Assembly (NCBI GenBank): GCA_002686955.1
Contig: NYZA01000172.1
Coordinates: 1 to 17,185 of the forward strand
Reading direction: 5' to 3'
Length of the DNA: 17,185 nucleotides
Source: Gemmatimonadota bacterium
Lineage (GTDB): Bacteria > GCA-2686955
Part shown: positions 1,126 to 17,170 of the stretch, in pieces
Layout: every line of letters starts with the position of its first letter
How positions within the stretch are numbered: the first letter of the stretch is position 1
Translations under genes and position numbers: made by a program
Notes under the pieces: generated by a model
The model's input: only the letters and a program-made list of their open reading frames with translations
Told to the model about the DNA's origin: nothing
Database searches by the model: none

Positions 1126-1457
1126 ATGAGGATCCCGCGGAAGACGAAGACGATGGATGGCGCTGTTCGCCGGTGGGGGGTCTTGGGGCTCGCGGTGTGC
1201 TTGATTTGGGGGGTTCCGCAGACTGGGGAGGGGATCATTGTGGCGGCTCCCGAAGAGGAAGCCTGGAACGGTCGACAGAAGGAATCTCCAATACAGTGCG
1301 AAGCGGTGGTCTCCACCGCCCCGGAAGGGAACGAACCCGGGCGGTTCCTTGAGAGTTGGAGGCTCTGGTACGAGAGGCTCATGGGCACGCGCCACGCCAT
1401 CGAGTCTTCTGCATTTTTCCCTCTGGGCGGTCCCGCGAGACGAGAAGGGCAGGCGCA

Positions 1458-1461
<4 letters not shown>
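1126..1461 (+). CDS. Small putative exported or membrane-anchored protein, coupled to the regulator
   Basis: This frame gives 111 residues. I chose the ATG at 1126 because AGGAGA (1115-1120) lies 5 nt before it. A TTG further upstream (1069) would place the start inside the dyad. The N-terminus is basic (MRIPRKTKTMDGAVRR) and is followed by a hydrophobic stretch, WGVLGLAVCLIWGV (about residues 17-30), as in a signal peptide or membrane anchor. The remaining roughly 75 residues are hydrophilic and contain one Cys (IQCEAVV). No family is recognised. The stop overlaps the ATG of the sigma-54 activator (ATGA, 1458-1461), which implies translational coupling. It could be an export-linked sensor or a partner of the regulator, or merely a leader ORF. 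Confidence 0.6.
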
Positions 1462-4301
<2,840 letters not shown>

Positions 4302-5967: not shown

Positions 5968-8900
5968 TCACGTCCCCTCCAATGGGACCCCAATCTCCCC
6001 AAGCAAGTCAAGGGCTCGCTTGCGCATGCCCGAGTCGGCGGGCGAGAGCTCGACCGCCTTCCACAGGTGGCGTTCGGCGGCCGATCGATCGCCCGCTTCG
6101 ACCCAGAGCTCCCCCAGGAAGTAGTGCCCCGGGATGTTGAAGTTCTGAATCGCGGTGACCCGCTCGAACGACTCGATAGCCGCTGTGCGCTCACCGAGCT
6201 TGCGCTGCAGCTTGCCCAGTCCGATCCAGGCCCGCACCGAGAACTCGTCCGCCTCGATCGCCGCGCGGTAGAGCTGAAGGGCTTCTGGGTCGCGCCCGCG
6301 CTTCGCCTGAACGTCGCCGAGGTTGACCAGCACGCCCTCCCCGTCGAGCCCGAGCTCCCGCGCTCGCTCCAAAGATGCGGCAGCTTCGGTCCATCTTCGC
6401 TGCGCCTTCTGCACGAGGCCGAGATTGTAGTGAAGGCGGGGGTTGTCCGGCTCGCGCTCCAGCGCGCGGCGAACCAGCTCGAGTTGGTGCTCCGGCGTCG
6501 CCCGCTCCGCTAGCAGATCGTCCAGCACCGGCGCCGGATCGGCTCGGCCGAAGGGGTCGACCACCATCGAGACGGCGCCACGTGGCTCGGCCCACTCCTC
6601 CGCCGGGCTCAGATCGCCCCCTTCGACGAGGGGCAGTGAGAAGGGGATCGCCGGAACCGACTCCCCTCCCACGAATGTGCGATCGGCGAAGCGCTCGCCA
6701 CCGTTCCACAGGTCGATGACCACCTCGGGGGTGCCGCTACCCAAGAGCCTGCAGATCACCTCCATGCCGATCGGCTGTCTGGCTCTGGATACAAACGACA
6801 CTCTTCCTTCTTCGTCGTCCCAGATGTGGTCGGAGGATTCGGTAAAGCGCCAGGGCCGCACGGCGTAGCTCACGTTTCGGAATCGAAGCTCACCCATGTA
6901 CCAGCGGTACCGCTCCGTGAACGGACTGGTCGCCTCCCAGTCTTTGCTCCAGATCATCACTAGGCGGACGTGTCGGCTGTCGATTCGCTCCCGGAAGATG
7001 CTCGCGCCATCTTCGTAGCCGAAATTCAGCCAGCGCGGATCGTCGCTTTCTATCGCCCTCGCCGCCGGATGCCGATCGGCGACGTTCGTCGCTCGGGGGG
7101 CTCGTCCGCTGCCCCAAATCCGCACCGAGCGAAGTGTCGGTGTTTCATCGGCCCAGAGGCGCAGTGTGTGCATGCCCGATGACAACGAACGGTTCAGGAC
7201 AACGCGGCGCGGCCCCTCGTTTCGATGGTGCGAGCCGTCGAATGCCCGATCCCCTTCCCACCCGAAGCGCACGCCGTCCAGATCCAACTGCAAGTCGTCG
7301 TCGAGAAGGCGAGGGTTCTTCCCCCGAGCACCCACGAATTTCACTTCGGCGACGACCTCGATCCGAACATCTTCGTCGCCAGACTCGAATCGAAGCTCGC
7401 GCCAGATTTCGCGCCGAGCCGGCACCGGCTCGATTGGGCCTTCGAGCGAGAAGAGCTCACGCCTTCCGACCACGAACTCGACGCTCGCTTCGTTGTCGCC
7501 TTCATCCCCTTCGCGCACTCTTCCGCCGACGTCTACCTCGAAGTGCAGCTCGCAGAGACCCGCCGGCGCATCTTTCCACTGCGTCGTGAATCGGGCCTCC
7601 GCTCCGGCCCTGATCGCGGGAATCGAGACGCGCCCTACCCGTCGCGGGCGCCCCCCGACCTCGGCATCGATCTCCAAGGCCGTGGGTGAAGATGTCATCT
7701 TCCCTCTGTTTCGAACGACACCCGCGAGGATAAGATCGGCGCCCTCTTGTGATATGCTAATTCCTTCGCGCGTCACCTCGAGATCGGCGGTGGGGCGATC
7801 GATCCACACCGGGCTCGACCAGGCCATCTCGCCGTCTTCCTGGGTCACCCGGGCGTAGTAGTAGGTCGTCTGCCCCATCGGCTCGGCATCGGTCCAACTG
7901 AAGGTCTCGAAGGTCTCCGTTCCTTCGTGAATCGCCACCACTTTGTTGTTGCGAACGATTTCAATCGTTTCGATCGGACTCATGCCGAGCACCGTGGTGA
8001 TCGCGGTCGGCGCCGTATCGCTGACGAACTCCTGCCCCATGATGTGCCCGTCGACCCTGAAGTCCAGCACGATGCGCGCATTCGTGGTGGCGTAGCAGCG
8101 ACGATCTTCGAGAGCGCTGAAAACACCGGCTCTCGTCAGCTTGGTGGCCCAAACCGCGGCTAGACCGAGCTGGGCCGGCTTTCCAGAATGGCTGTCTCCA
8201 CCACCAATGAAACCGAGTCGGTGTCCGCGGGCGAGGGCATCATGGGCGGATGCGTCGCGAACGTTGATCGTCGAATAAGGCGTCGTGTACTTCTGGTCGA
8301 GCGGCGTTCGGGGTGTGATCGGATTCGGGCACCAATAGTACTCGGTGCGGCCGTGCAGTGAGTAGATCTCGACAATCTTTTGAAAGCGCTCGTCGTGAAA
8401 ACCCCAGTCGGTCGGCCGGAACGCCGAAGGAGCGTGGTGGGGAATGGTCAGCGCCCGCCTATTGCCGAGCGCCCGCCATAGGCCCTCGGGGTGATCGGTT
8501 CCCTCTTCCATCCGCCGGAGCATCGGTGCGTCTGCTTCGGAGATGAAATACACATTTTTGTCGCCGAGCTTGTTCGAATACTCGTAGGCGGGGAAGGTGA
8601 CGAAACGCCCCGGCTCGTTCCACTTGCCGACGAGCGAGTTGAGCTCGTTCCAGGTCTGGTCGTTGACCAGATAGTCGTGGTCGGTCAGCATCGCGAAATC
8701 GAGCCCTTCGATGTCGCGCGCGATCCGCCAGAAGTCTCTCGGATCGCCACGACCATCGGAGTACGATGTGTGCTCGTGGGTCTCACCAAAATAGAGCTGA
8801 TACTCGAAGGGAATCGGAACACAGGCGACGGTTGCTTCGCCGAAAACGAATTCGTCCTCTTCGACCCTGGCGCTGATCGTCTGGTAGCCGATGGTTCTGA

Positions 8901-9618
8901 GCGAAACCGAGGCGGGCAAATCGAAGCTCCCCTCCCCTCCCGCCTCGACGCGTTTCGGATCGGGCAGCTGCGCGAGCGAATCGCTGCATTCGAAGTAGAG
9001 CGTGCCCTCGAAAGGTTCCCCCATAGGCCCGGTGTCGATGTAGACGGAAAGGTCGAAAGGCTTGTGTCGGGCGGCATAGGCCGGTACCCGCACCGACAAG
9101 GTCGGAAGGATCAGAATCGGCGGCGTCGATGCCAAGGGGGCGGCGATTCCGTCGCCATCGCCGTCGACGGTGCACCCGATCGAATAGCGCCCGGCGTTTT
9201 CCGGCGGCAGTGGAGCGTGGAAGTTCAGCATGAGCTCATCCCCTTCGTACAGGGGACCGTCCCGCACGCCGAGGCGCACGCGCCAGAGCTCGCCGTCGAT
9301 CTCGGTATCGGCCTCGATTCTGGCGTTAGCCGCCGTCGTGCTGACGGTCGCCGACGCATCGAGCGCTTCGTCGAGAAGCTCCGAGCGGGTGATTCTCCTG
9401 GGGATCTCGAGTGTGACCTCTCCCCCCGCCTCGATCCCCGCCGGGCCCGCGATGAAGGTCCACCGCGGATACCAATCCCCTTCGCCAAGCCGCGCGGAGT
9501 TGTGCAGCACATCGAGGCGACCACTTCCATCGACATCCGAGCCGAACCCGCCGCAACCGGTCACGAGCAGGGCGTAGAGGATCGTCAGAACGACGGCGAT
9601 CGGTTGTCGTCTTTCCAC
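5968..9618 (-). CDS. CehA/McbA (DUF3604-like) PHP metallohydrolase lipoprotein with CARDB-like and TPR domains
   Basis: This is a 1216-residue lipoprotein. The signal peptide has a lipobox VTGC with Cys22 and Gly at +2, which favours export to the outer membrane or periplasmic leaflet. The PHP-type fold carries the expected metal ligands: HEH (281-283) in YFGETHEHTSYSDG, TDHD (312-315), His394/395 in TIPHHAP, His422 and GGDSH (473-477). A CARDB-like beta domain lies at about 610-715, further beta-rich regions at 720-1000, and three to four TPRs at about 1045-1200. CehA is known as a carbaryl hydrolase, but most family members have no known substrate, so 'metal-dependent hydrolase' is all the sequence supports. 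The start is a GTG at 9618 with a weak ribosome binding site, chosen because it gives a proper signal peptide. Relatives are usually shorter and lack the TPR tail. It diverges from the glycosyltransferase operon. Confidence 0.93.
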   Translation of the reverse strand: MERRQPIAVVLTILYALLVTGCGGFGSDVDGSGRLDVLHNSARLGEGDWYPRWTFIAGPAGIEAGGEVTLEIPRRITRSELLDEALDASATVSTTAANARIEADTEIDGELWRVRLGVRDGPLYEGDELMLNFHAPLPPENAGRYSIGCTVDGDGDGIAAPLASTPPILILPTLSVRVPAYAARHKPFDLSVYIDTGPMGEPFEGTLYFECSDSLAQLPDPKRVEAGGEGSFDLPASVSLRTIGYQTISARVEEDEFVFGEATVACVPIPFEYQLYFGETHEHTSYSDGRGDPRDFWRIARDIEGLDFAMLTDHDYLVNDQTWNELNSLVGKWNEPGRFVTFPAYEYSNKLGDKNVYFISEADAPMLRRMEEGTDHPEGLWRALGNRRALTIPHHAPSAFRPTDWGFHDERFQKIVEIYSLHGRTEYYWCPNPITPRTPLDQKYTTPYSTINVRDASAHDALARGHRLGFIGGGDSHSGKPAQLGLAAVWATKLTRAGVFSALEDRRCYATTNARIVLDFRVDGHIMGQEFVSDTAPTAITTVLGMSPIETIEIVRNNKVVAIHEGTETFETFSWTDAEPMGQTTYYYARVTQEDGEMAWSSPVWIDRPTADLEVTREGISISQEGADLILAGVVRNRGKMTSSPTALEIDAEVGGRPRRVGRVSIPAIRAGAEARFTTQWKDAPAGLCELHFEVDVGGRVREGDEGDNEASVEFVVGRRELFSLEGPIEPVPARREIWRELRFESGDEDVRIEVVAEVKFVGARGKNPRLLDDDLQLDLDGVRFGWEGDRAFDGSHHRNEGPRRVVLNRSLSSGMHTLRLWADETPTLRSVRIWGSGRAPRATNVADRHPAARAIESDDPRWLNFGYEDGASIFRERIDSRHVRLVMIWSKDWEATSPFTERYRWYMGELRFRNVSYAVRPWRFTESSDHIWDDEEGRVSFVSRARQPIGMEVICRLLGSGTPEVVIDLWNGGERFADRTFVGGESVPAIPFSLPLVEGGDLSPAEEWAEPRGAVSMVVDPFGRADPAPVLDDLLAERATPEHQLELVRRALEREPDNPRLHYNLGLVQKAQRRWTEAAASLERARELGLDGEGVLVNLGDVQAKRGRDPEALQLYRAAIEADEFSVRAWIGLGKLQRKLGERTAAIESFERVTAIQNFNIPGHYFLGELWVEAGDRSAAERHLWKAVELSPADSGMRKRALDLLGEIGVPLEGT

Positions 9619-9751: not shown

Positions 9752-11824
9752 GTGTCTTCCAAGCAAACTGAATCGCCAGCCGAATCGGCCGGGAGGGGGG
9801 GCTCCCAGGCTCCTTGGGTGTGGGGTCTCCTGCTAATGATCGCCACGGCGATCCGGCTACTAGGCACCGGCTTCAATATCTCGCTCGACGGCGGCTGGGT
9901 CGGAGCCTGGCACGCGGACGAGTACGGGCTGTGGAACAAATCGGGCCTGATCTGGCCCGATCTAGATCCGCATTACTGGGGCTATCCGGCCCTGCACCTC
10001 TATCTGCTGGCCGGCCTGAACGCCGTCTCCTTCGCCCTCGCGCGCGTGATCGGCATGGCTCCCGACCTCGACTACCACGCATATCTCGATGCGGTGCCGG
10101 GGCTGCGCTATCTGCTCGGCCGCTGGCTCTCGGTCGCGGCCGGCGTGGGAACGATCGTGCTTCTCGCGCGCCGCGGCCGGATCGTCGCGGGCGGTGCGGC
10201 TCTTTGGGCCGCCGCCTTCCTGGCTTTCTGTCCCCTGCACGTGCACCACTCCCACTACGCCACGCTCGGCGCCGTCTTCACGCTCCTCTTCACGGCGGCC
10301 TCCCTGGCCCAGCTGCGGCTCGTCGAGAGGGAGGGTCGGGGAGCGCTGGCCGCGGGCCTGCTGGCCGGACTGACGGTCTCGGAGAAGTACAACGCCGTCG
10401 TGCTCGTCGTCACCCTGCCGCTCGCCGCCGCCCTCGGGGCTCGTCGCGGTGGGGGCTCGATCGTTCGCCCGATCGCGAAAAGCGCCGCCGCCGCCTTCGC
10501 GATCACCCTCGCCGTCAATCTCGCCTTTCCGCTGAACTTCGAGACATCGTGGGCGGAGCTGACCCACAATGTGGACCGCGTCGTGCGCCTCGACACCGGC
10601 CCCTCCGAGGTCCATCCGATCATCGACTACCTGAAGATGCTCGTGCGCCACACCGGAGCGGGGCTGCTTCTGATGTCGGTCGTGGGCATCGCTGCGTTCA
10701 TCCAACGGCGGCGGGCGGCCGGCGCCCTCCTGGCTCTGATTCTCGTCGCCTACCTCGCGCTCATGGCGAGCTTCGGCTTTCAGGTGCCGCGCTACACCCT
10801 GCCGGTAGTTCCGCTGATCTGTCTGCTCGCGGCGACCGGTTGCGCGGCGATCGGCTCGGCCGTCGGCCGGTGGGCGCGCTTCCTGACGCCGGCGCTCGGG
10901 GTCTTGGTGCTCGCCGAGATGCTCCCCCGCACCCGCGACGTGCTCGACATCTTCGCCGTGACCGACAGCCGAATCGAAGCCTCGCGCTGGATCCGCCGCA
11001 ACCTGCCGGAAGGCAGCTCGATCGCCGTTGAATCGCAGGGCGAGTACGGACCGACCGTGAACGCGGAGCTCTTCGACCTGACCCCCTTCAGCTTCTTCGT
11101 CGGCCAGCCGATGTACGGCCCCTTCGTCAAACAGGCCCGCTGGTTGCTGATCGGCCGCGACGACAATGCCACGCCGAACCCGAAGGGCGGCGTGGCGCTG
11201 GAGCGGCTTTCGGTCGAGCTCGACGCGCCTGGCGAACGAGAGGCGGAGCGGCTCGCGGCGAAGAAGGCGGCGGAGCTCGGTCTGGAGCGCTGGACGCTCG
11301 AAAGCGATGTTCCCTGCGGCGACTTCGCCTCTTTGCTGGCGAAGGGCGTCAACTATGTCGCGATAAGCGAATCGATGTACGAAAACCCTGAGACCGGCGC
11401 CTTCAGCAACTTCTACCGCGATCTATGGAACGACCCGCGCACCCTTCGCGTCGCCCGATTCCCCGGGCGAGACTACGACCATTCGGTTCACCACCCCGAA
11501 ATCCGTATCTACCACGTTGGAAGCCCCGAGCTGCGTTCCGGCACCGACCGCGACGGCTACTATCGGCCCGAAAAAGGGAAGGCCTATCTCATGGACATCC
11601 CCTCATCGCTGGTCTCCGACATTCCGGGGGCGGAGGATCGATCGCATCTCGCGCTTTTCGAAGACGGTGTTCCTCTCGGTCCCGCCCACCAGCGACATAA
11701 ATTGATCCGTTCGGCGGGAGGAGGGCGCTACAGTCACCTGAACAAGCGCCTCGTCTTCTCGACATCGGATGGCAGCGACCCGAACACCAACGGCCGGCGC
11801 TACCACTGGATCGAGCTCAGATGA
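9752..11824 (+). CDS. GT39-like membrane glycosyltransferase with C-terminal module (first of operon)
   Basis: This is a 690-residue polytopic protein of the phospholipid carrier-dependent (GT39/ArnT/PMT-like) type, which moves a sugar from a polyprenyl-phosphate donor on the outer face of the cytoplasmic membrane. After the first transmembrane helix (about 22-40) comes the acidic loop WHADE (53-57), whose Asp/Glu is the likely catalytic base, then LDPHYWGYPALHLYLL. About ten more hydrophobic segments run to roughly residue 400. The HVHHSHYATLGAVFTLLF stretch is typical of the family. A soluble domain follows and ends in a distinctive module at 603-690 (FEDGVPLGP, GGGRYSH, FSTSDGSDPNTNGR) that is shared with the third gene. 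The GTG start is chosen because the next ATG (9836) lies within the first helix. The stop overlaps the following ATG (ATGA). Acceptor and sugar are unknown. Confidence 0.9.
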   Translation: MSSKQTESPAESAGRGGSQAPWVWGLLLMIATAIRLLGTGFNISLDGGWVGAWHADEYGLWNKSGLIWPDLDPHYWGYPALHLYLLAGLNAVSFALARVIGMAPDLDYHAYLDAVPGLRYLLGRWLSVAAGVGTIVLLARRGRIVAGGAALWAAAFLAFCPLHVHHSHYATLGAVFTLLFTAASLAQLRLVEREGRGALAAGLLAGLTVSEKYNAVVLVVTLPLAAALGARRGGGSIVRPIAKSAAAAFAITLAVNLAFPLNFETSWAELTHNVDRVVRLDTGPSEVHPIIDYLKMLVRHTGAGLLLMSVVGIAAFIQRRRAAGALLALILVAYLALMASFGFQVPRYTLPVVPLICLLAATGCAAIGSAVGRWARFLTPALGVLVLAEMLPRTRDVLDIFAVTDSRIEASRWIRRNLPEGSSIAVESQGEYGPTVNAELFDLTPFSFFVGQPMYGPFVKQARWLLIGRDDNATPNPKGGVALERLSVELDAPGEREAERLAAKKAAELGLERWTLESDVPCGDFASLLAKGVNYVAISESMYENPETGAFSNFYRDLWNDPRTLRVARFPGRDYDHSVHHPEIRIYHVGSPELRSGTDRDGYYRPEKGKAYLMDIPSSLVSDIPGAEDRSHLALFEDGVPLGPAHQRHKLIRSAGGGRYSHLNKRLVFSTSDGSDPNTNGRRYHWIELR
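11558..11821 (+). other. C-terminal module, copy 1
   Basis: These 88 codons are the end of the first glycosyltransferase. Aligned without gaps to the end of the third glycosyltransferase (15081-15347), I count 44 identities over the first 80 residues. The invariant part includes PLGP, H-x-x-HK, GGGR, SH, RL and FSTSDGSDPNTNGR. I know no named domain for it. Confidence 0.75.
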
Positions 11825-13344
11825 CGCGAGCCGATGCGTGGCCCCTGATCTCCGTTCTCTTACTGGGGCTGGCTCTCCGATGGACAGGCATCCGGGCTGC
11901 CTTCGATCACCCAGATGAGCTGCACCTGCACAGTCGGATCGAGTACCTGCTCGAGAGCGGGAGCCTCGATCCACACTACGAAGGTAGCGAGCTCGGCCAT
12001 TACCCCTGGGGAACCTTTCCGATCTACATTTACTCCTTCGGCAGAATTCTGTTGTCACCGCTTTTCGGCGAGGAGGAAATCTCCGGTCATCGGCCCTGGA
12101 ACGACCGGAGTTGGTCCGGCCTCTTCGGTGTCGCCACCGTGCTTCTCGTCTACATGCTGGGGCATCGAGCGGGAGGGCGAGGAGTCGGTATCTTGGCGGC
12201 AACGGCGATCTGCATTGCGCCGCTCCATGTTCAGATCTCTCACTATCTCACCCCCGATGCATTGGGTACACTTTTGCTCTGCACCGCGCTCCTGACCGCG
12301 GACATCGCTAGGCGCGACCATCATCATCGAATCGCGCTGCTCGGAGGGTCGAGCCTTGCCGCGGGCCTCGCCGTGGCGTGCAAGTACACCTTTTTCTCGG
12401 GCCTGCTAGCACCGGTAGCTGCGGCTTGGAGCGGGAGTGGATCGAGATGTGCGCGCCTTGCGATCGTCGCTGCCGTGTCGGCTACAGGGTTTCTGATCGG
12501 CGAGCCCTATGCCCTGTTCGACCTCTCCGGTTTCTGGCATCATTTGACGATCGAGGGGCGGGCCTATACGGGCCATATCGGTCAGGCAATGGCGGTGGGA
12601 GGACGAAGCCATCTCTTCTACCTCTTTTATCTCGCACGCTCGGGCCTCGGCCCGCTGCTCGCGCTGGCCTGCACGGCTGGTGTGGCCCACCTCCTGCTTT
12701 CAACTCCCAGACCGTACACGAGGGCGCGCACTTGGATCTGGGCGGGGCCCCCGTTGCTACATCTCGGATTCGTTGGATCGTTCCCGCTGCAGTACGATCG
12801 AAATGTGCTCCCACTCCTTCCTCCTCTCGCCGTCGCCGCCGCCGTCGGCATCGTGGTGCTGGGGGGCGGGCGGCACTTTCCCGGCCCCGGGCTTCGAGGG
12901 TGGGCGATCGCTCTGGGCGTGCTCGCTCCCACACTCGCGGCCTCGATCGTGCTCGATCTCGCCATCCGCCGCCCACATCCGCGCGACGAAGCGAACTGGT
13001 GGCTCCAGACGCGGGGGCCCGATTCCGGCCAGGTCCATTCCGAGACCTACAGCAACCCCTTGAGCGTGGGCGAGATGATCGCCGCCGGCTACCGATACGC
13101 CCTGACCGACGGACGGTACGAGCGGCCGCTCCGCTCCCATCCCGAACGCTATCCCGCGGTGGTCGAGGTCCTAGCCGAGCTCCGAGAAGGGGCTCGTGTG
13201 GCGAAGATCTGGCGCAATCCGATCCTCGATAACGACTGGCTCGTTCCGGCGTGGCTGGAGCATGGCGCCACCCTGCCCGACTACCACGGAAGCCGGGTCA
13301 CGCTCTGGGAGCTGCCGGGAGAGACGTCGGGGGAGAACCGGTAG
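11821..13344 (+). CDS. GT39-like membrane glycosyltransferase (second of operon)
   Basis: This 507-residue membrane protein starts at the ATGA overlap with the previous gene. Its first helix (about 7-25) leads into the acidic loop DHPDELHLHSRI (Asp32/Glu33), and a long extracytoplasmic loop with GHYPWGTFPIYIY follows. A family-typical stretch PLHVQISHYLTPDALGTLLL lies between later helices, and I see roughly ten hydrophobic segments in all. The C-terminal soluble part is short, only about 110 residues after the last helix, and lacks the module found in its two relatives. The role is therefore sugar transfer from a lipid-phosphate donor, with unknown sugar and acceptor. Divergence from the flanking paralogues suggests a separate specificity. 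The TAG stop is 2 bp before the next ATG. Confidence 0.88.
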   Translation: MTRADAWPLISVLLLGLALRWTGIRAAFDHPDELHLHSRIEYLLESGSLDPHYEGSELGHYPWGTFPIYIYSFGRILLSPLFGEEEISGHRPWNDRSWSGLFGVATVLLVYMLGHRAGGRGVGILAATAICIAPLHVQISHYLTPDALGTLLLCTALLTADIARRDHHHRIALLGGSSLAAGLAVACKYTFFSGLLAPVAAAWSGSGSRCARLAIVAAVSATGFLIGEPYALFDLSGFWHHLTIEGRAYTGHIGQAMAVGGRSHLFYLFYLARSGLGPLLALACTAGVAHLLLSTPRPYTRARTWIWAGPPLLHLGFVGSFPLQYDRNVLPLLPPLAVAAAVGIVVLGGGRHFPGPGLRGWAIALGVLAPTLAASIVLDLAIRRPHPRDEANWWLQTRGPDSGQVHSETYSNPLSVGEMIAAGYRYALTDGRYERPLRSHPERYPAVVEVLAELREGARVAKIWRNPILDNDWLVPAWLEHGATLPDYHGSRVTLWELPGETSGENR

Positions 13345-13346
13345 AG

Positions 13347-15350
13347 ATGATCCGCGCATGTCTCCGGATCGCCGTCGGCGAGGGCTCGCGCACCCCGAGC
13401 TGCCACGTCGCACTGCTCTTGATGCTCATCGGCTTTCTGATCCGCTTCATCGGGATCGGCTTCGGCGCCTCGATGGAGGGGGATTGGGTCGGGAATTGGC
13501 ACGACGACGAGGTGGCCTGGGTCGCGGGCTCGATCTCTTTCGCCGATCTGAACCCGCATTATTGGGGCTACCCAGCGCTCCATCTCTATCTGCTTTACCT
13601 GCTCAATCTCGCTCTCTACTCCGTGTCGTGGCTCGTCGGTTTCTCGATGCCGCGCGAGTACGGCGCCTTCATTCTCGCCAGCGAAGTCGAGCGGCTGATG
13701 ATCGCCCGCGCCGTTAGCGTCGCCTTCGCGACCACCACGCTTTGGCTGGTCTGGAAGCTGGCGAACCGGAGCCTCGGCCGTACGACCGCCCTGGTGGCCC
13801 TCGCCTTGGCGGTCTTCAACCCGGCGCTGGTTCGCCACGCTCACTACGCCACGGTCGATTCGTCGAACACCTTCTTCGTGCTCGCCGCTCTTGTGGCGGC
13901 CTTCGCGGTCTATCGCGATCCCGACTCGCGGAAAAAAGTGATGCTCTGTGGCGCGCTGGCCGGTTGCGCCGCTTCGATCAAGTATCTGGGGGGAATGGTG
14001 GCCCTTGCCCTGCCGATCGCCCTCGCGTGTGGGTTGAGCCAGCGCGGGCGGCGCTGGCTCGGTGTCTTCGCGCGCGGCGATCTCTGGGGAGCAGCCTTGA
14101 TCTCGATCGCCGTCTTCTTCGCGATCAACATCTACATTCTGCTCGACTGGAACGATTTCATCACCCTCTTCTCGGTCAATCTCGAGGCGGTTTCCGGGAG
14201 CGCGATCTTCGCGCAGAGCTGGTACGCCGGGCTCACCTTCCCGGCGCTCAATTTCTTCTGGGGTTTCGGCGGAACAGTCTTCATCGCGATCGGAGTTGTG
14301 TCGTTCATCTTCGGCAAGCGTCGCGAGGGGGCGATCCTGCTCGCCTTTCCCCTTGTTTTCGCTGCGGTCCTAGGCGATTTCGAATGGCGGATGAGTCGCC
14401 AGGTGCTGCCGGCGATCCCGATCTTGCTCATCGTAGCGGCCCGGGGCGTTACTTGGCTCGCATCGGCGTGCGCGCGGCCCTTCCCTGCCACGTCGCGGCG
14501 GATAGTGGAGCCGGCGGGGGCTTGCCTCTTCACCGGGTCGGTGTTGTTCACCTGCATGCCTATCCTAAAAACCGTGACTTGGACCTTCACCCACAGCGAC
14601 ACCCGGTACGATTTCGCCAGTTGGGCCGCGAGCAGCTTCGAACCGGGAACTCGGGTCTTGCTCGAAGACACGGGCGCCTACGGATCGCTGATCGATGACG
14701 CGAGGATAGAAGTGACGCCTCATCATCTCGCCCCCTCCGACGCCGTGAAGACGTATGCGGAGCTAAGGCGCAGCGATGTGGAGTATGTCGTAACGAGCTC
14801 GATCTTCACCGAGCTGGGCGATGGACTGAGCAGAGAGGGCGGTCTGCCGGACGAGCAGGCGGCGGGTTTCTATCGCGCGCTCGAGGCCGATCCACTTTTT
14901 GTTCCGATCGCGATCTTCGACAAGGGGGAGTTCGATTCGGGAGCATTGCTCGGCCGGAGCAACTTCGAGTACATCATTTTGACTAGAGTGTCGCCTTCAC
15001 AATTCGAAGTGCACAATCCCACGATCAAGGTGTACCGGCGGCTTCCCGTTCGACCGACCTACCATCGCGACTCCGACGGACACTATCCGCACCACAAGGG
15101 GTACGCATACCTTTTCGACATGCCGGTGCGGCTCGCTTGCGACGACGACGAGGATCGAGAGCGCTCGAGGGTCGTGCTCTACGAGGACGATCGCCCTCTC
15201 GGTCCCCCACATGCGATGCACAAAGATGTGATGCGGATCGGCGGCGGGCGCTTCAGCCACTGGGACGATCGGCTCTTCTTCTCGACGAGCGATGGAAGCG
15301 ATCCGAATACGAACGGACGCACCTATCGGGCGAGCGAGGTCGGGCCTTGA
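13347..15350 (+). CDS. GT39-like membrane glycosyltransferase with C-terminal module (third of operon)
   Basis: The product has 667 residues. I place the start at the ATG at 13347, 2 bp after the previous stop, with GGGGGAG (13329-13335) upstream. The open frame continues back to 13251, but that extension would overlap the previous gene and reads as an Arg/Pro shadow. The protein mirrors the first glycosyltransferase: a helix at about 21-38, the acidic loop WHDDE (51-55), LNPHYWGYPALHLYLLYLL, then VRHAHYATVDSSNTFF and about ten helices. A soluble domain follows and ends in the shared module (579-667; YEDDRPLGP, GGGRFSH, FSTSDGSDPNTNGR). The two are clearly paralogues that have diverged more in the membrane part than in this tail. 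The TGA stop overlaps the TTG start of the next gene. Confidence 0.9.
   Translation: MIRACLRIAVGEGSRTPSCHVALLLMLIGFLIRFIGIGFGASMEGDWVGNWHDDEVAWVAGSISFADLNPHYWGYPALHLYLLYLLNLALYSVSWLVGFSMPREYGAFILASEVERLMIARAVSVAFATTTLWLVWKLANRSLGRTTALVALALAVFNPALVRHAHYATVDSSNTFFVLAALVAAFAVYRDPDSRKKVMLCGALAGCAASIKYLGGMVALALPIALACGLSQRGRRWLGVFARGDLWGAALISIAVFFAINIYILLDWNDFITLFSVNLEAVSGSAIFAQSWYAGLTFPALNFFWGFGGTVFIAIGVVSFIFGKRREGAILLAFPLVFAAVLGDFEWRMSRQVLPAIPILLIVAARGVTWLASACARPFPATSRRIVEPAGACLFTGSVLFTCMPILKTVTWTFTHSDTRYDFASWAASSFEPGTRVLLEDTGAYGSLIDDARIEVTPHHLAPSDAVKTYAELRRSDVEYVVTSSIFTELGDGLSREGGLPDEQAAGFYRALEADPLFVPIAIFDKGEFDSGALLGRSNFEYIILTRVSPSQFEVHNPTIKVYRRLPVRPTYHRDSDGHYPHHKGYAYLFDMPVRLACDDDEDRERSRVVLYEDDRPLGPPHAMHKDVMRIGGGRFSHWDDRLFFSTSDGSDPNTNGRTYRASEVGP
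15081..15347 (+). other. C-terminal module, copy 2
   Basis: This is the second copy of the module described at 11558-11821, here forming the last 89 residues of the third glycosyltransferase. The FSTSDGSDPNTNGR segment is identical in both copies at protein level but differs in codons, so this is an old duplication under protein-level constraint and not a recent gene conversion. Confidence 0.75.
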
Positions 15351-17170
15351 GCGAGAGCTCGGCGCTCGCGGCGGCCTGGATCGCGCTGATCGGAGCGCTC
15401 GGAGTGTTGCTGGGCGCGGTGGCGCGGGCAGGGCTTCGGGGTGAAATCGTGTCGATGCCGGATCGACCAACGCGGGAGTCTGCGCGATTCATCGGATCCG
15501 CTTGGACTGGAGCGATCGTCGCCGCCGGGGTTGTGTTCGCGCCCGCGCTCGGCAGCTTCTTCATCAACGACGACTGGAAACATATTCAGATCGCCCAGGA
15601 GCTGTTGGCGCTTTCGCCGTTCGGGGCGCTCGCGCAGCTCTTCGTGCGCCTGCGCGAGATCACCGAAGAGAACGTGCGGATCCTCGGCTACGTCTCGTGG
15701 GTGGTGCGATGGGTCGTGCTGGGGTCGCATTCGGTGCTCTACCACGTGGGGGCGATCGGCGAGCACCTCGTCGATGCGGCGCTGGTTTTTCTGCTGGCGC
15801 GGCGGCTGGCGGGACAGCGCTCGGCGGGGGTTGCGGCGGGCGCCTTTTTTCTGGTGCACACGGTGCAGGCCGAGACGGTGGGCTACCTCTCGGCCGGTGA
15901 GGATCGGCTGGTGACCGGGTTGACGCTCGCTGTGTTGCTCGCGCATATCGCTTGGCGAGATGGGCGCTCGGCGGGCTTCCGTTGGGGGGCGGTGGCGGGG
16001 ACGGGCGCCGCGTTGCTGGCCAAGGAGATGGCGCTGGTGATCCCGGCGGCGGTCTTTCTGGTCGATCTCTTCGCGGCGCGAGGGGGGGCGACGGGCGCGA
16101 AGCGAGGGGGGGCTACGAGACTGCGCGGGGCGGTGGGCGCGGCGGCTCCGCACCTGGTCGTGGTCGGATTCTATCTGGCCTGGCGCTATGCGGTCCTGGG
16201 GCATATGGGCGGCTACCGCGATGCGGAAGGGGCGATGGTGCATCTGGCGTTCGACGCGGGTGCCGCCGCCCACTCCTTCTTCGGGGTCTTGCTGCCGGGT
16301 CTCGTGCTGCCTCGCCAGCTCGTCTGGACGGCCGCGTGGATCGAGCCCATCGTGTTGGCGCTCTGGGCGCTGCTCTTCGCGTTAGGGGTGGCCCGCGCCC
16401 GCTTCCCGGGCGCCGCTCTGGCGATCGGGGCGGGTCTGATCGTTCTGGCCTTCGGACCGGTGCACAATCTGCTGCCGACCTACGAGGCGTGGGCGAATTC
16501 ACGCTACCTCCAGCTCGCGGCGGCCGGGTTCGCCTGCATCGTCGGGGCGATCGTCGCGGGCGAAGGGGGACGGAAGGCGGCGGAGGGCGCGCGTTGGAGC
16601 TGCTTCGCCCTTCTCTTGCTCTATCTGGCCGGCACCTGCAGGGGAACCGTCGAGTTGATCGTTTCGACGGGGAGCGAGTCGAGGGACCTGCTCGCAGCGG
16701 TGGAGCCATTCGCCGCGCAGGCTCCCCCGCGCTCCGCCCTCGTGCTGTCGCCGCATCATGTGGGAACGACAATCCCGCCGGAGGTGCATTCCGCGCAGCC
16801 CGCTCTCGGCATGCCGAGCCGACCTCTCTATGGTCTCGAGGCCGACGGACGGCTGGAAGGCGAAGGCGATTGGTCGGGGCGGTCCTTTGGTCCCAAGCTC
16901 CTGGGCGAGGGGCGCACGGGGCGCTTGCTTCTCTGGAGCTCGAGCGGCGGCGAGCACGATTTCGTCGACGGGACGGCGGACTATCTGGCGGCGAGCTCTC
17001 GGGCACGGGGCGCTTCGGTGCTCGAGCTCGAAGTCGAAGAAGATGGGGCGGGGGAAGGGCGGGGCGCATTGCTCTGCCAAGGCCGGCCTGACCCTCCTGA
17101 CCAAGGTGTTGGCGATGGAACTGGGCCAGTATTACATCAACGTCAATGCCGTAGCTCCTGGCCTGATTGA
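15347..17170 (+). CDS. TMTC-like (GT-C) multi-pass membrane protein, fourth of operon, with abnormal 3' end
   Basis: The pattern is that of GT-C proteins related to the TMTC/PMT group: an acidic pair FFINDDWKHI (Asp75/Asp76) after an N-terminal helix, then FFLVHTVQAETVGYLSAGEDRL, the equivalent of the family's HPVxxE-x-V-x-W-x-S-x-R-x-D region. LLAKEMALVIPAAVFLVDLF follows, with about eleven hydrophobic segments in total. I prefer the TTG at 15347: it overlaps the preceding TGA (TTGA), has GAGG (15336-15339) 7 nt upstream and adds a further helix. An ATG at 15455 is the alternative. The frame runs to a TGA at 17168-17170, giving 607 residues, but the last roughly 35 codons, from about 17067, coincide with dehydrogenase coding sequence in another frame. 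The native C-terminus is therefore probably missing. Confidence 0.82.
   Translation: MSESSALAAAWIALIGALGVLLGAVARAGLRGEIVSMPDRPTRESARFIGSAWTGAIVAAGVVFAPALGSFFINDDWKHIQIAQELLALSPFGALAQLFVRLREITEENVRILGYVSWVVRWVVLGSHSVLYHVGAIGEHLVDAALVFLLARRLAGQRSAGVAAGAFFLVHTVQAETVGYLSAGEDRLVTGLTLAVLLAHIAWRDGRSAGFRWGAVAGTGAALLAKEMALVIPAAVFLVDLFAARGGATGAKRGGATRLRGAVGAAAPHLVVVGFYLAWRYAVLGHMGGYRDAEGAMVHLAFDAGAAAHSFFGVLLPGLVLPRQLVWTAAWIEPIVLALWALLFALGVARARFPGAALAIGAGLIVLAFGPVHNLLPTYEAWANSRYLQLAAAGFACIVGAIVAGEGGRKAAEGARWSCFALLLLYLAGTCRGTVELIVSTGSESRDLLAAVEPFAAQAPPRSALVLSPHHVGTTIPPEVHSAQPALGMPSRPLYGLEADGRLEGEGDWSGRSFGPKLLGEGRTGRLLLWSSSGGEHDFVDGTADYLAASSRARGASVLELEVEEDGAGEGRGALLCQGRPDPPDQGVGDGTGPVLHQRQCRSSWPD

What the first reader, a model, noticed from the sequence alone, without database searches (positions are those of the whole stretch)
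11558..15347. Unnamed C-terminal module shared by two of three GT39-like glycosyltransferases in one operon
The first and third glycosyltransferases end in modules that align without gaps over at least 80 residues (44 identities by my count), with an invariant FSTSDGSDPNTNGR and conserved GGGR-x-SH and PLGP. The second glycosyltransferase between them lacks it. The module is on the extracytoplasmic side if family topology holds. Its Asp/Asn/Ser/His-rich conserved core looks like a ligand- or sugar-binding site, or a recognition tag for a partner. I know no named domain for it.
Basis: partly seen in the sequence, partly recalled or inferred. Interest (0 to 1): 0.7.

Follow-up and report, generated by a model that had tools for sequence, protein, structure and literature searches.

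The report
Unnamed portable domain on glycan enzymes
Two membrane sugar-transferring enzymes in this window end in a small, unnamed protein domain that turns out to be attached to dozens of unrelated enzymes that build or trim surface sugars in many bacterial phyla (and apparently in giant viruses), so it is probably a shared handle with which those enzymes grip the same kind of sugar chain.

Summary
The first and third GT39-like glycosyltransferases end in an ungapped 88-residue module (53% identical, against 29% for the whole proteins). The second lacks it. It is not the family's standard periplasmic domain: a GT39 paralogue in the same genome and a homologue in a related genome lack it.

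It is a mobile, apparently unnamed domain, with no Pfam, NCBIfam, PHROGs or PDB-sequence match. A profile found 168 distinct copies in 73 genomes or contigs of at least nine phyla, at either end, internal, solo or in tandem. Hosts include GT39/GtrII/GT4/GT61 glycosyltransferases, methyltransferases, sulfotransferases, radical-SAM enzymes, SGNH hydrolases, sulfatases, pectate lyases and Wzt-type ABC ATPases. Fold search adds giant-virus enzymes. Carriers cluster in surface-glycan loci: 68 of 121 carrier pairs lie within 30 kb, about 1.5 expected. AlphaFold gives a confident small beta domain (pLDDT 88-91) with no convincing PDB relative.

Best explanation: a non-catalytic glycan-recognition module holding enzymes, on either side of the membrane, on their common glycan. 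That function is inferred; the ligand is unknown.

The parts
9752..11824 (+). GT1: GT39/PMT_2-like polytopic glycosyltransferase, 690 aa, with C-terminal module
   Evidence: PMT_2 E 2.9e-7; about 10 hydrophobic segments, then a 322-residue tail
11555..11821 (+). Module copy 1 (GT1 residues 602-690)
   Evidence: Alignment A1, 53% identical to copy 2; profile E 4.1e-53; AlphaFold pLDDT 91.1
11756..11797 (+). Core FSTSDGSDPNTNGR of copy 1
11821..13344 (+). GT2: GT39/PMT_2-like glycosyltransferase, 507 aa, no module
   Evidence: PMT_2 E 2.7e-9; no module match
13347..15350 (+). GT3: GT39/PMT_2-like glycosyltransferase, 667 aa from ATG 13347, with C-terminal module
   Evidence: PMT_2 E 4.9e-10; start candidates
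15078..15347 (+). Module copy 2 (GT3 residues 578-667)
   Evidence: Profile E 2.3e-55; AlphaFold pLDDT 87.6, pTM 0.79
15279..15320 (+). Core FSTSDGSDPNTNGR of copy 2

Best explanation
The tail is one copy of a mobile, unnamed beta domain of about 88 residues. It is non-catalytic and most likely a glycan-recognition module. Its conserved site (E54, G73-x-G75-R-Y/F-S-H-W80, D90-x-S-[DN]93-P94-x-x-N97-G98-R99-x-Y101, plus the H63/H66 pair; numbering of the 108-residue GT3 fragment) would bind a feature common to surface glycans or their lipid-linked intermediates, and so hold or orient otherwise unrelated enzymes on the same chain. In GT1 and GT3 it would hang on the periplasmic side behind the GT-C membrane core and hold the acceptor or nascent glycan. 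Shown: the domain exists, is mobile, is conserved, has a confidently predicted beta fold, and sits in glycan loci. Inferred: that it binds a ligand, that the ligand is a glycan, and that this positions the enzyme.
For: 1) Hosts: among 85 carriers Pfam finds methyltransferases, GT1/GT4, sulfotransferases, SGNH/GDSL hydrolases, sulfatase, pectate lyases, PcRGLX lyase, PMT_2, ABC ATPase with Wzt_C, radical-SAM/SPASM, GFO/IDH/MocA and transglutaminase-like domains. Most can act on sugars or glycans. 2) In two Wzt-type exporter ATPases ABC_tran and Wzt_C lie at 44-176 and 408-542 (L088) and at 274-406 and 636-766 (L076), with the module between them (motif at 337 and 568). Wzt_C is an established carbohydrate-binding domain (PMC9445017). 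3) Neighbours of carriers are asparagine synthase/amidotransferase (6), GT4 (5), methyltransferases (5), GT2 (3), epimerases, DegT and Polysacc_synt_2; none of these is among the listed families of a matched control from the same 12 genomes. 4) Carriers cluster: 68 of 121 pairs within 30 kb against about 1.5 expected. 5) It occurs both on soluble cytoplasmic enzymes and after an N-terminal anchor in exported or membrane proteins. Lipid-linked glycans are met on both sides of the membrane; a single protein partner is unlikely to be. 6) Polar site residues E54, D90, N97 and R99 stay at 92-100% in copies outside the scan motif. 7) Foldseek finds the same fold (TM 0.72-0.84, 24-37% identity) in giant-virus proteins, four of them annotated as methyltransferase, galacturonosyltransferase-like, radical SAM and glutamine amidotransferase.
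Against: No binding data, and no structural relative with a known ligand: the best PDB matches (XylC Z 7.7-8.0 at rmsd 4.4-5.1 over 100 residues; BT_1002 Z 7.3) are at noise level. The module hardly varies with host or genome (mean identity 42.3% within a genome against 40.0% between genomes, different hosts). A module reading variable surface glycans might be expected to diverge, so the ligand would have to be a common element, or the invariant residues may be structural or metal-binding. A few hosts (PASTA/PKD protein of Scalindua, transglutaminase-like proteins) are not obviously glycan enzymes.
Confidence: 0.55

Rival explanations
1. Protein-protein docking module: it gathers the enzymes of one pathway into a complex, through a common receptor or by self-association.
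For: Several unrelated enzymes of one locus carry it; tandem copies and solo membrane-anchored copies exist; the site is nearly invariant, as expected of a fixed partner.
Against: Carriers lie on both sides of the membrane and include secreted lyases, so one partner protein is unlikely. No common partner family was identified in the neighbour census. The window genome has carriers on three separate contigs.
Confidence: 0.2
2. Lipid-carrier or membrane-surface recognition: the module binds the polyprenyl (di)phosphate or head-group end of lipid-linked intermediates, which is the same in all pathways.
For: Explains a constant site and use on both sides of the inner membrane.
Against: Does not fit outer-surface or secreted hosts such as the Bacteroidota pectate lyases with lipoprotein-like leaders or sulfatases.
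Confidence: 0.1
3. A metal-stabilised (for example Ca2+) structural spacer without a specific ligand; the invariant Asp/Asn loop is a metal site and the module only aids folding or spacing.
For: Asp/Asn-rich invariant loop; small beta domain; occurs at either end or inside proteins.
Against: Spacers are seldom conserved at about 40% identity over phyla with invariant His, Trp and Arg; restriction to glycan loci is not explained.
Confidence: 0.12

Closest known systems
Wzt C-terminal carbohydrate-binding domain (PF14524) of O-antigen ABC exporters
   Same: Accessory domain in surface-glycan machinery; in two proteins (L088, L076) it sits in the same chain as our module.
   Different: Separate, non-overlapping Pfam domain of about 140 residues; specific for a terminal cap of the polymer (PMC9445017). 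Ours is about 88 residues, on many enzyme classes, with a near-invariant site.
Carbohydrate-binding modules (CAZy CBM families, as a kind)
   Same: Small non-catalytic beta domain, mobile, N- or C-terminal or in tandem, on enzymes acting on glycans.
   Different: No sequence or convincing fold match to a solved structure of any kind; most hosts are biosynthetic or cytoplasmic, whereas classical CBMs sit mainly on secreted glycoside hydrolases (own knowledge).
RiPP recognition element (RRE), as an analogy only
   Same: One small recognition domain fused to many unrelated tailoring enzymes of one pathway type (PMC12710340, abstract).
   Different: Different kind of locus (surface glycans, not peptides) and an all-beta predicted fold; no homology was tested or is claimed.
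Periplasmic C-terminal domain of GT39/ArnT-type GT-C enzymes
   Same: Same place in GT1 and GT3.
   Different: The module is an extra beyond it and occurs on dozens of enzymes that are not GT-C; paralogues lack it.

Membership tests
GT39 / PMT_2 glycosyltransferase (the hosts GT1-GT3) | PF13231 match above the gathering score | tested here: met
   31.3, 37.9 and 40.3 bits against a cut-off of 26.1
GT39 / PMT_2 glycosyltransferase (the hosts GT1-GT3) | Glycosyl transfer from a lipid-phosphate sugar | not testable with these tools
   Needs biochemistry
Standard periplasmic domain of GT39 enzymes (the module) | Present throughout the family and limited to it | tested here: not met
   Absent from GT2, from the C143 paralogue and from the G001 homologue; present on many unrelated hosts
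Any Pfam, NCBIfam or PHROGs family (the module) | Significant profile match over the module | tested here: not met
   no family covers the module; the best NCBIfam match is one of 99 members at E 0.0027
Wzt_C (PF14524) | Profile match over the module | tested here: not met
   In L088 and L076 Wzt_C matches a separate stretch downstream of the module
Carbohydrate-binding module | Discrete, mobile, non-catalytic domain on carbohydrate-active enzymes | tested here: met
Carbohydrate-binding module | Shown binding to a carbohydrate | not testable with these tools
   Needs glycan array, ITC or a structure
Carbohydrate-binding module | Fold of a known CBM family | tested here: inconclusive
   Foldseek: no PDB hit with E below 0.001; VIA Z at most 8.0 at rmsd 4.4-5.3

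The most novel reading that the evidence does not exclude
A general 'glycan recognition element': one small domain with a near-invariant site, spread horizontally across at least nine bacterial phyla and giant viruses, that lets unrelated synthesising, decorating, exporting and degrading enzymes on both sides of the membrane recognise a common element of surface glycans, so that carrying it marks an enzyme as part of a glycan pathway.
Probability: 0.3. Interest if true: 0.85.

Novelty: new variant of a known kind. Interest (0 to 1): 0.7.

Why it matters
A conserved domain shared by so many unrelated surface-glycan enzymes appears to have no name in the libraries searched. If it binds a glycan, it gives a direct handle on how enzymes of different folds are gathered on one growing polysaccharide, a marker for annotating hypothetical proteins in EPS and O-antigen loci, and a hint of a common element in glycans of distant phyla and giant viruses. 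A compact domain of 88 residues should be easy to express and test.

Tried and rejected
A single-sequence scan of genome contigs found nothing; the five-sequence profile found 180 relatives. Phage genomes have none and plasmids one, an SGNH hydrolase. PHROGs: none. PDB by sequence: only insignificant hits (PD-L2, E 0.2). PDB by fold: no significant hit; the XylC, BT_1002, tail-protein and Ig-like rows were read as common beta arrangements. Literature search for the motif strings: no relevant paper; a topical search gave none either. I considered locus-specific tags (modules in one cluster matching each other): rejected, because within-genome identity is barely above between-genome identity. 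I considered the invariant motif an artefact of the scan pattern: rejected for E54, G73, G75, D90, P94, N97, G98, R99 and Y101, which hold in 68 copies lacking the exact pattern. A RiPP-type recognition role was considered because of radical-SAM, Asn-synthase and transglutaminase-like companions, and set aside because the loci hold GTs, epimerases, Wzt ATPases and lyases. PADLOC was not scanned (cap reached); InterPro, CDD and dbCAN are not available here.

Full report
Observation. GT1 (9752-11824) and GT3 (13347-15350) are GT39/PMT_2-like enzymes, homologous over their length at 29% identity. Their last 88 residues align without gaps at 53%. A degenerate pattern for the core FSTSDGSDPNTNG occurs in the genome only at these two places. 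GT2 between them has no copy.

Not the ordinary tail of the family. The window's genome has one more related GT39-like enzyme with the module (C239) and an SGNH-type hydrolase with it (C224; assignment by eye from the sequence). A GT39 paralogue on C143 (33% identical to GT3) and a homologue in the only held genome of the same family (27%) have no module. The module is therefore an add-on.

How far it spreads. A five-member profile found 180 relatives in genome contigs, of which 80 were kept. They come from Alphaproteobacteria, Gammaproteobacteria, delta-proteobacteria, Planctomycetota, Bacteroidota, Chloroflexota, Armatimonadota, Acidobacteriota (Vicinamibacteria, Thermoanaerobaculia), Nitrospirae and Victivallales; phyla were read from record titles. 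Over the loci fetched by then there are 168 distinct modules in 73 genomes or contigs. After masking the module, the carrier frames fall into 68 BLAST groups; this is an upper bound on the number of host families, since remote homologues are not merged. Named host domains are listed. The distribution is sparse: 3 of 190 genomes of the Magnetospirillum class, 12 of 199 Planctomycetota and 2 of 198 Bacteroidota, the genome used as centre included each time. Genomes that have it may have up to 10 copies. This pattern fits horizontal spread.

Where the copies lie. In genomes with several carriers these often sit together: all 8 copies in Magnetospirillum sp. SS-4 within 28 kb, all in Azospirillum sp. 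TSO35-2 within 19 kb. Over 12 genomes, chosen because they carry the module, 68 of 121 carrier pairs lie within 30 kb against about 1.5 expected for random placement; three of the 12 show no such pair. Non-carrier neighbours are surface-glycan genes (Asn synthase 6, GT4 5, methyltransferase 5, GT2 3, epimerase, DegT, acetyltransferases, Polysacc_synt_2). None of these is among the 25 listed families of same-size control regions from the same genomes.

Topology. In GT1 and GT3 a tail of 260-320 residues follows the last predicted hydrophobic segment and ends in the module; by the known topology of GT39/ArnT enzymes (own knowledge) this is periplasmic. Many other carriers have one N-terminal anchor, then the module, then many membrane segments, or an anchor and the module alone. 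Others are soluble enzymes without signal or anchor, of classes that are cytoplasmic: methyltransferases, GT4, GT61, radical-SAM, sulfotransferases and Wzt-type ATPases. Hydrophobic segments were called with a simple Kyte-Doolittle scan, and charge bias around the first segment was not uniform.

Structure and conservation. AlphaFold gives the same small beta domain with one helix for both window copies (pLDDT 87.6 and 91.1). The conserved SDxSDPxTNGR segment is the loop before the last strand. Because loci were retrieved by a motif, conservation was recomputed on 68 copies lacking the exact motif: E54, G73, G75, D90, P94, N97, G98, R99 and Y101 are 92-100% conserved. No PDB relative is convincing. 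Foldseek against predicted viral proteins found clear relatives (TM 0.72-0.84, 24-37% identity) in Hyperionvirus and Harvfovirus proteins, four of them enzymes of the classes met in the bacterial loci.

Mechanism. The common denominator of the hosts is surface glycan, not reaction, fold or compartment. A module on a glycosyltransferase, a methyltransferase, a sulfotransferase, an exporter ATPase and a lyase is best explained by recognition of a shared substrate. Insertion between the ATPase domain and Wzt_C in two exporters points the same way, since Wzt_C is a proven glycan reader (PMC9445017). Against a classical specificity module is the near-constancy of the site: identity between modules depends little on genome or host, so the ligand should be a common element. 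Docking to a protein, lipid recognition and a metal-stabilised spacer remain open. The functional part is inference.

Novelty. No match in Pfam (2025 copy), NCBIfam 20, PHROGs or PDB sequences covers the module, and no relevant paper in the library holds its motif strings. Whether InterPro, CDD or dbCAN hold it could not be tested. I rate it as a new, unnamed accessory-domain family whose pathway-wide use sets it apart from known CBMs.

Noticed in passing
BFVD A0A3G5AAL9, A0A3G5AEI9, A0A3G5ADE5, A0A3G5A2W3, A0A3G5A4X5: The same module fold occurs in giant viruses (Hyperionvirus, Harvfovirus) on enzymes annotated as methyltransferase, amidotransferase, galacturonosyltransferase-like and radical SAM, the classes found in bacterial carriers or their neighbours.
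   Followed up: partly
L069:5842-6252, L048:5839-6240, L172, L173, L178-L180: Small proteins made of one N-terminal hydrophobic anchor and one module, frequent in Bradyrhizobium and on IMG/VR contigs; function unknown.
   Followed up: partly
L030:8230-10398 (-); L039 frame +1: Tandem copies: three modules before a radical-SAM/SPASM domain in Azospirillum; four further copies in one Asticcacaulis frame, one of them degenerate.
   Followed up: no
L131-L132 (Magnetospirillum sp. SS-4) and the neighbours: Asparagine-synthase-like amidotransferases and radical-SAM/SPASM proteins are frequent companions of the module, which hints at a particular class of amidated or amino-acid-decorated glycan.
   Followed up: partly
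window 5968-9618 (-): 1216-aa protein joining a DUF3604 match, a CARDB domain and C-terminal TPR repeats.
   Followed up: no
window 1356-4301 (+): Large protein that looks by eye like a sigma-54-type activator with a long N-terminal repeat region; not run against any library.
   Followed up: no
window about 15350-17170 (+): A fourth GT-C-like protein follows GT3 (weak PMT_2 match, E 7.1e-5, below the cut-off); it has no module.
   Followed up: no
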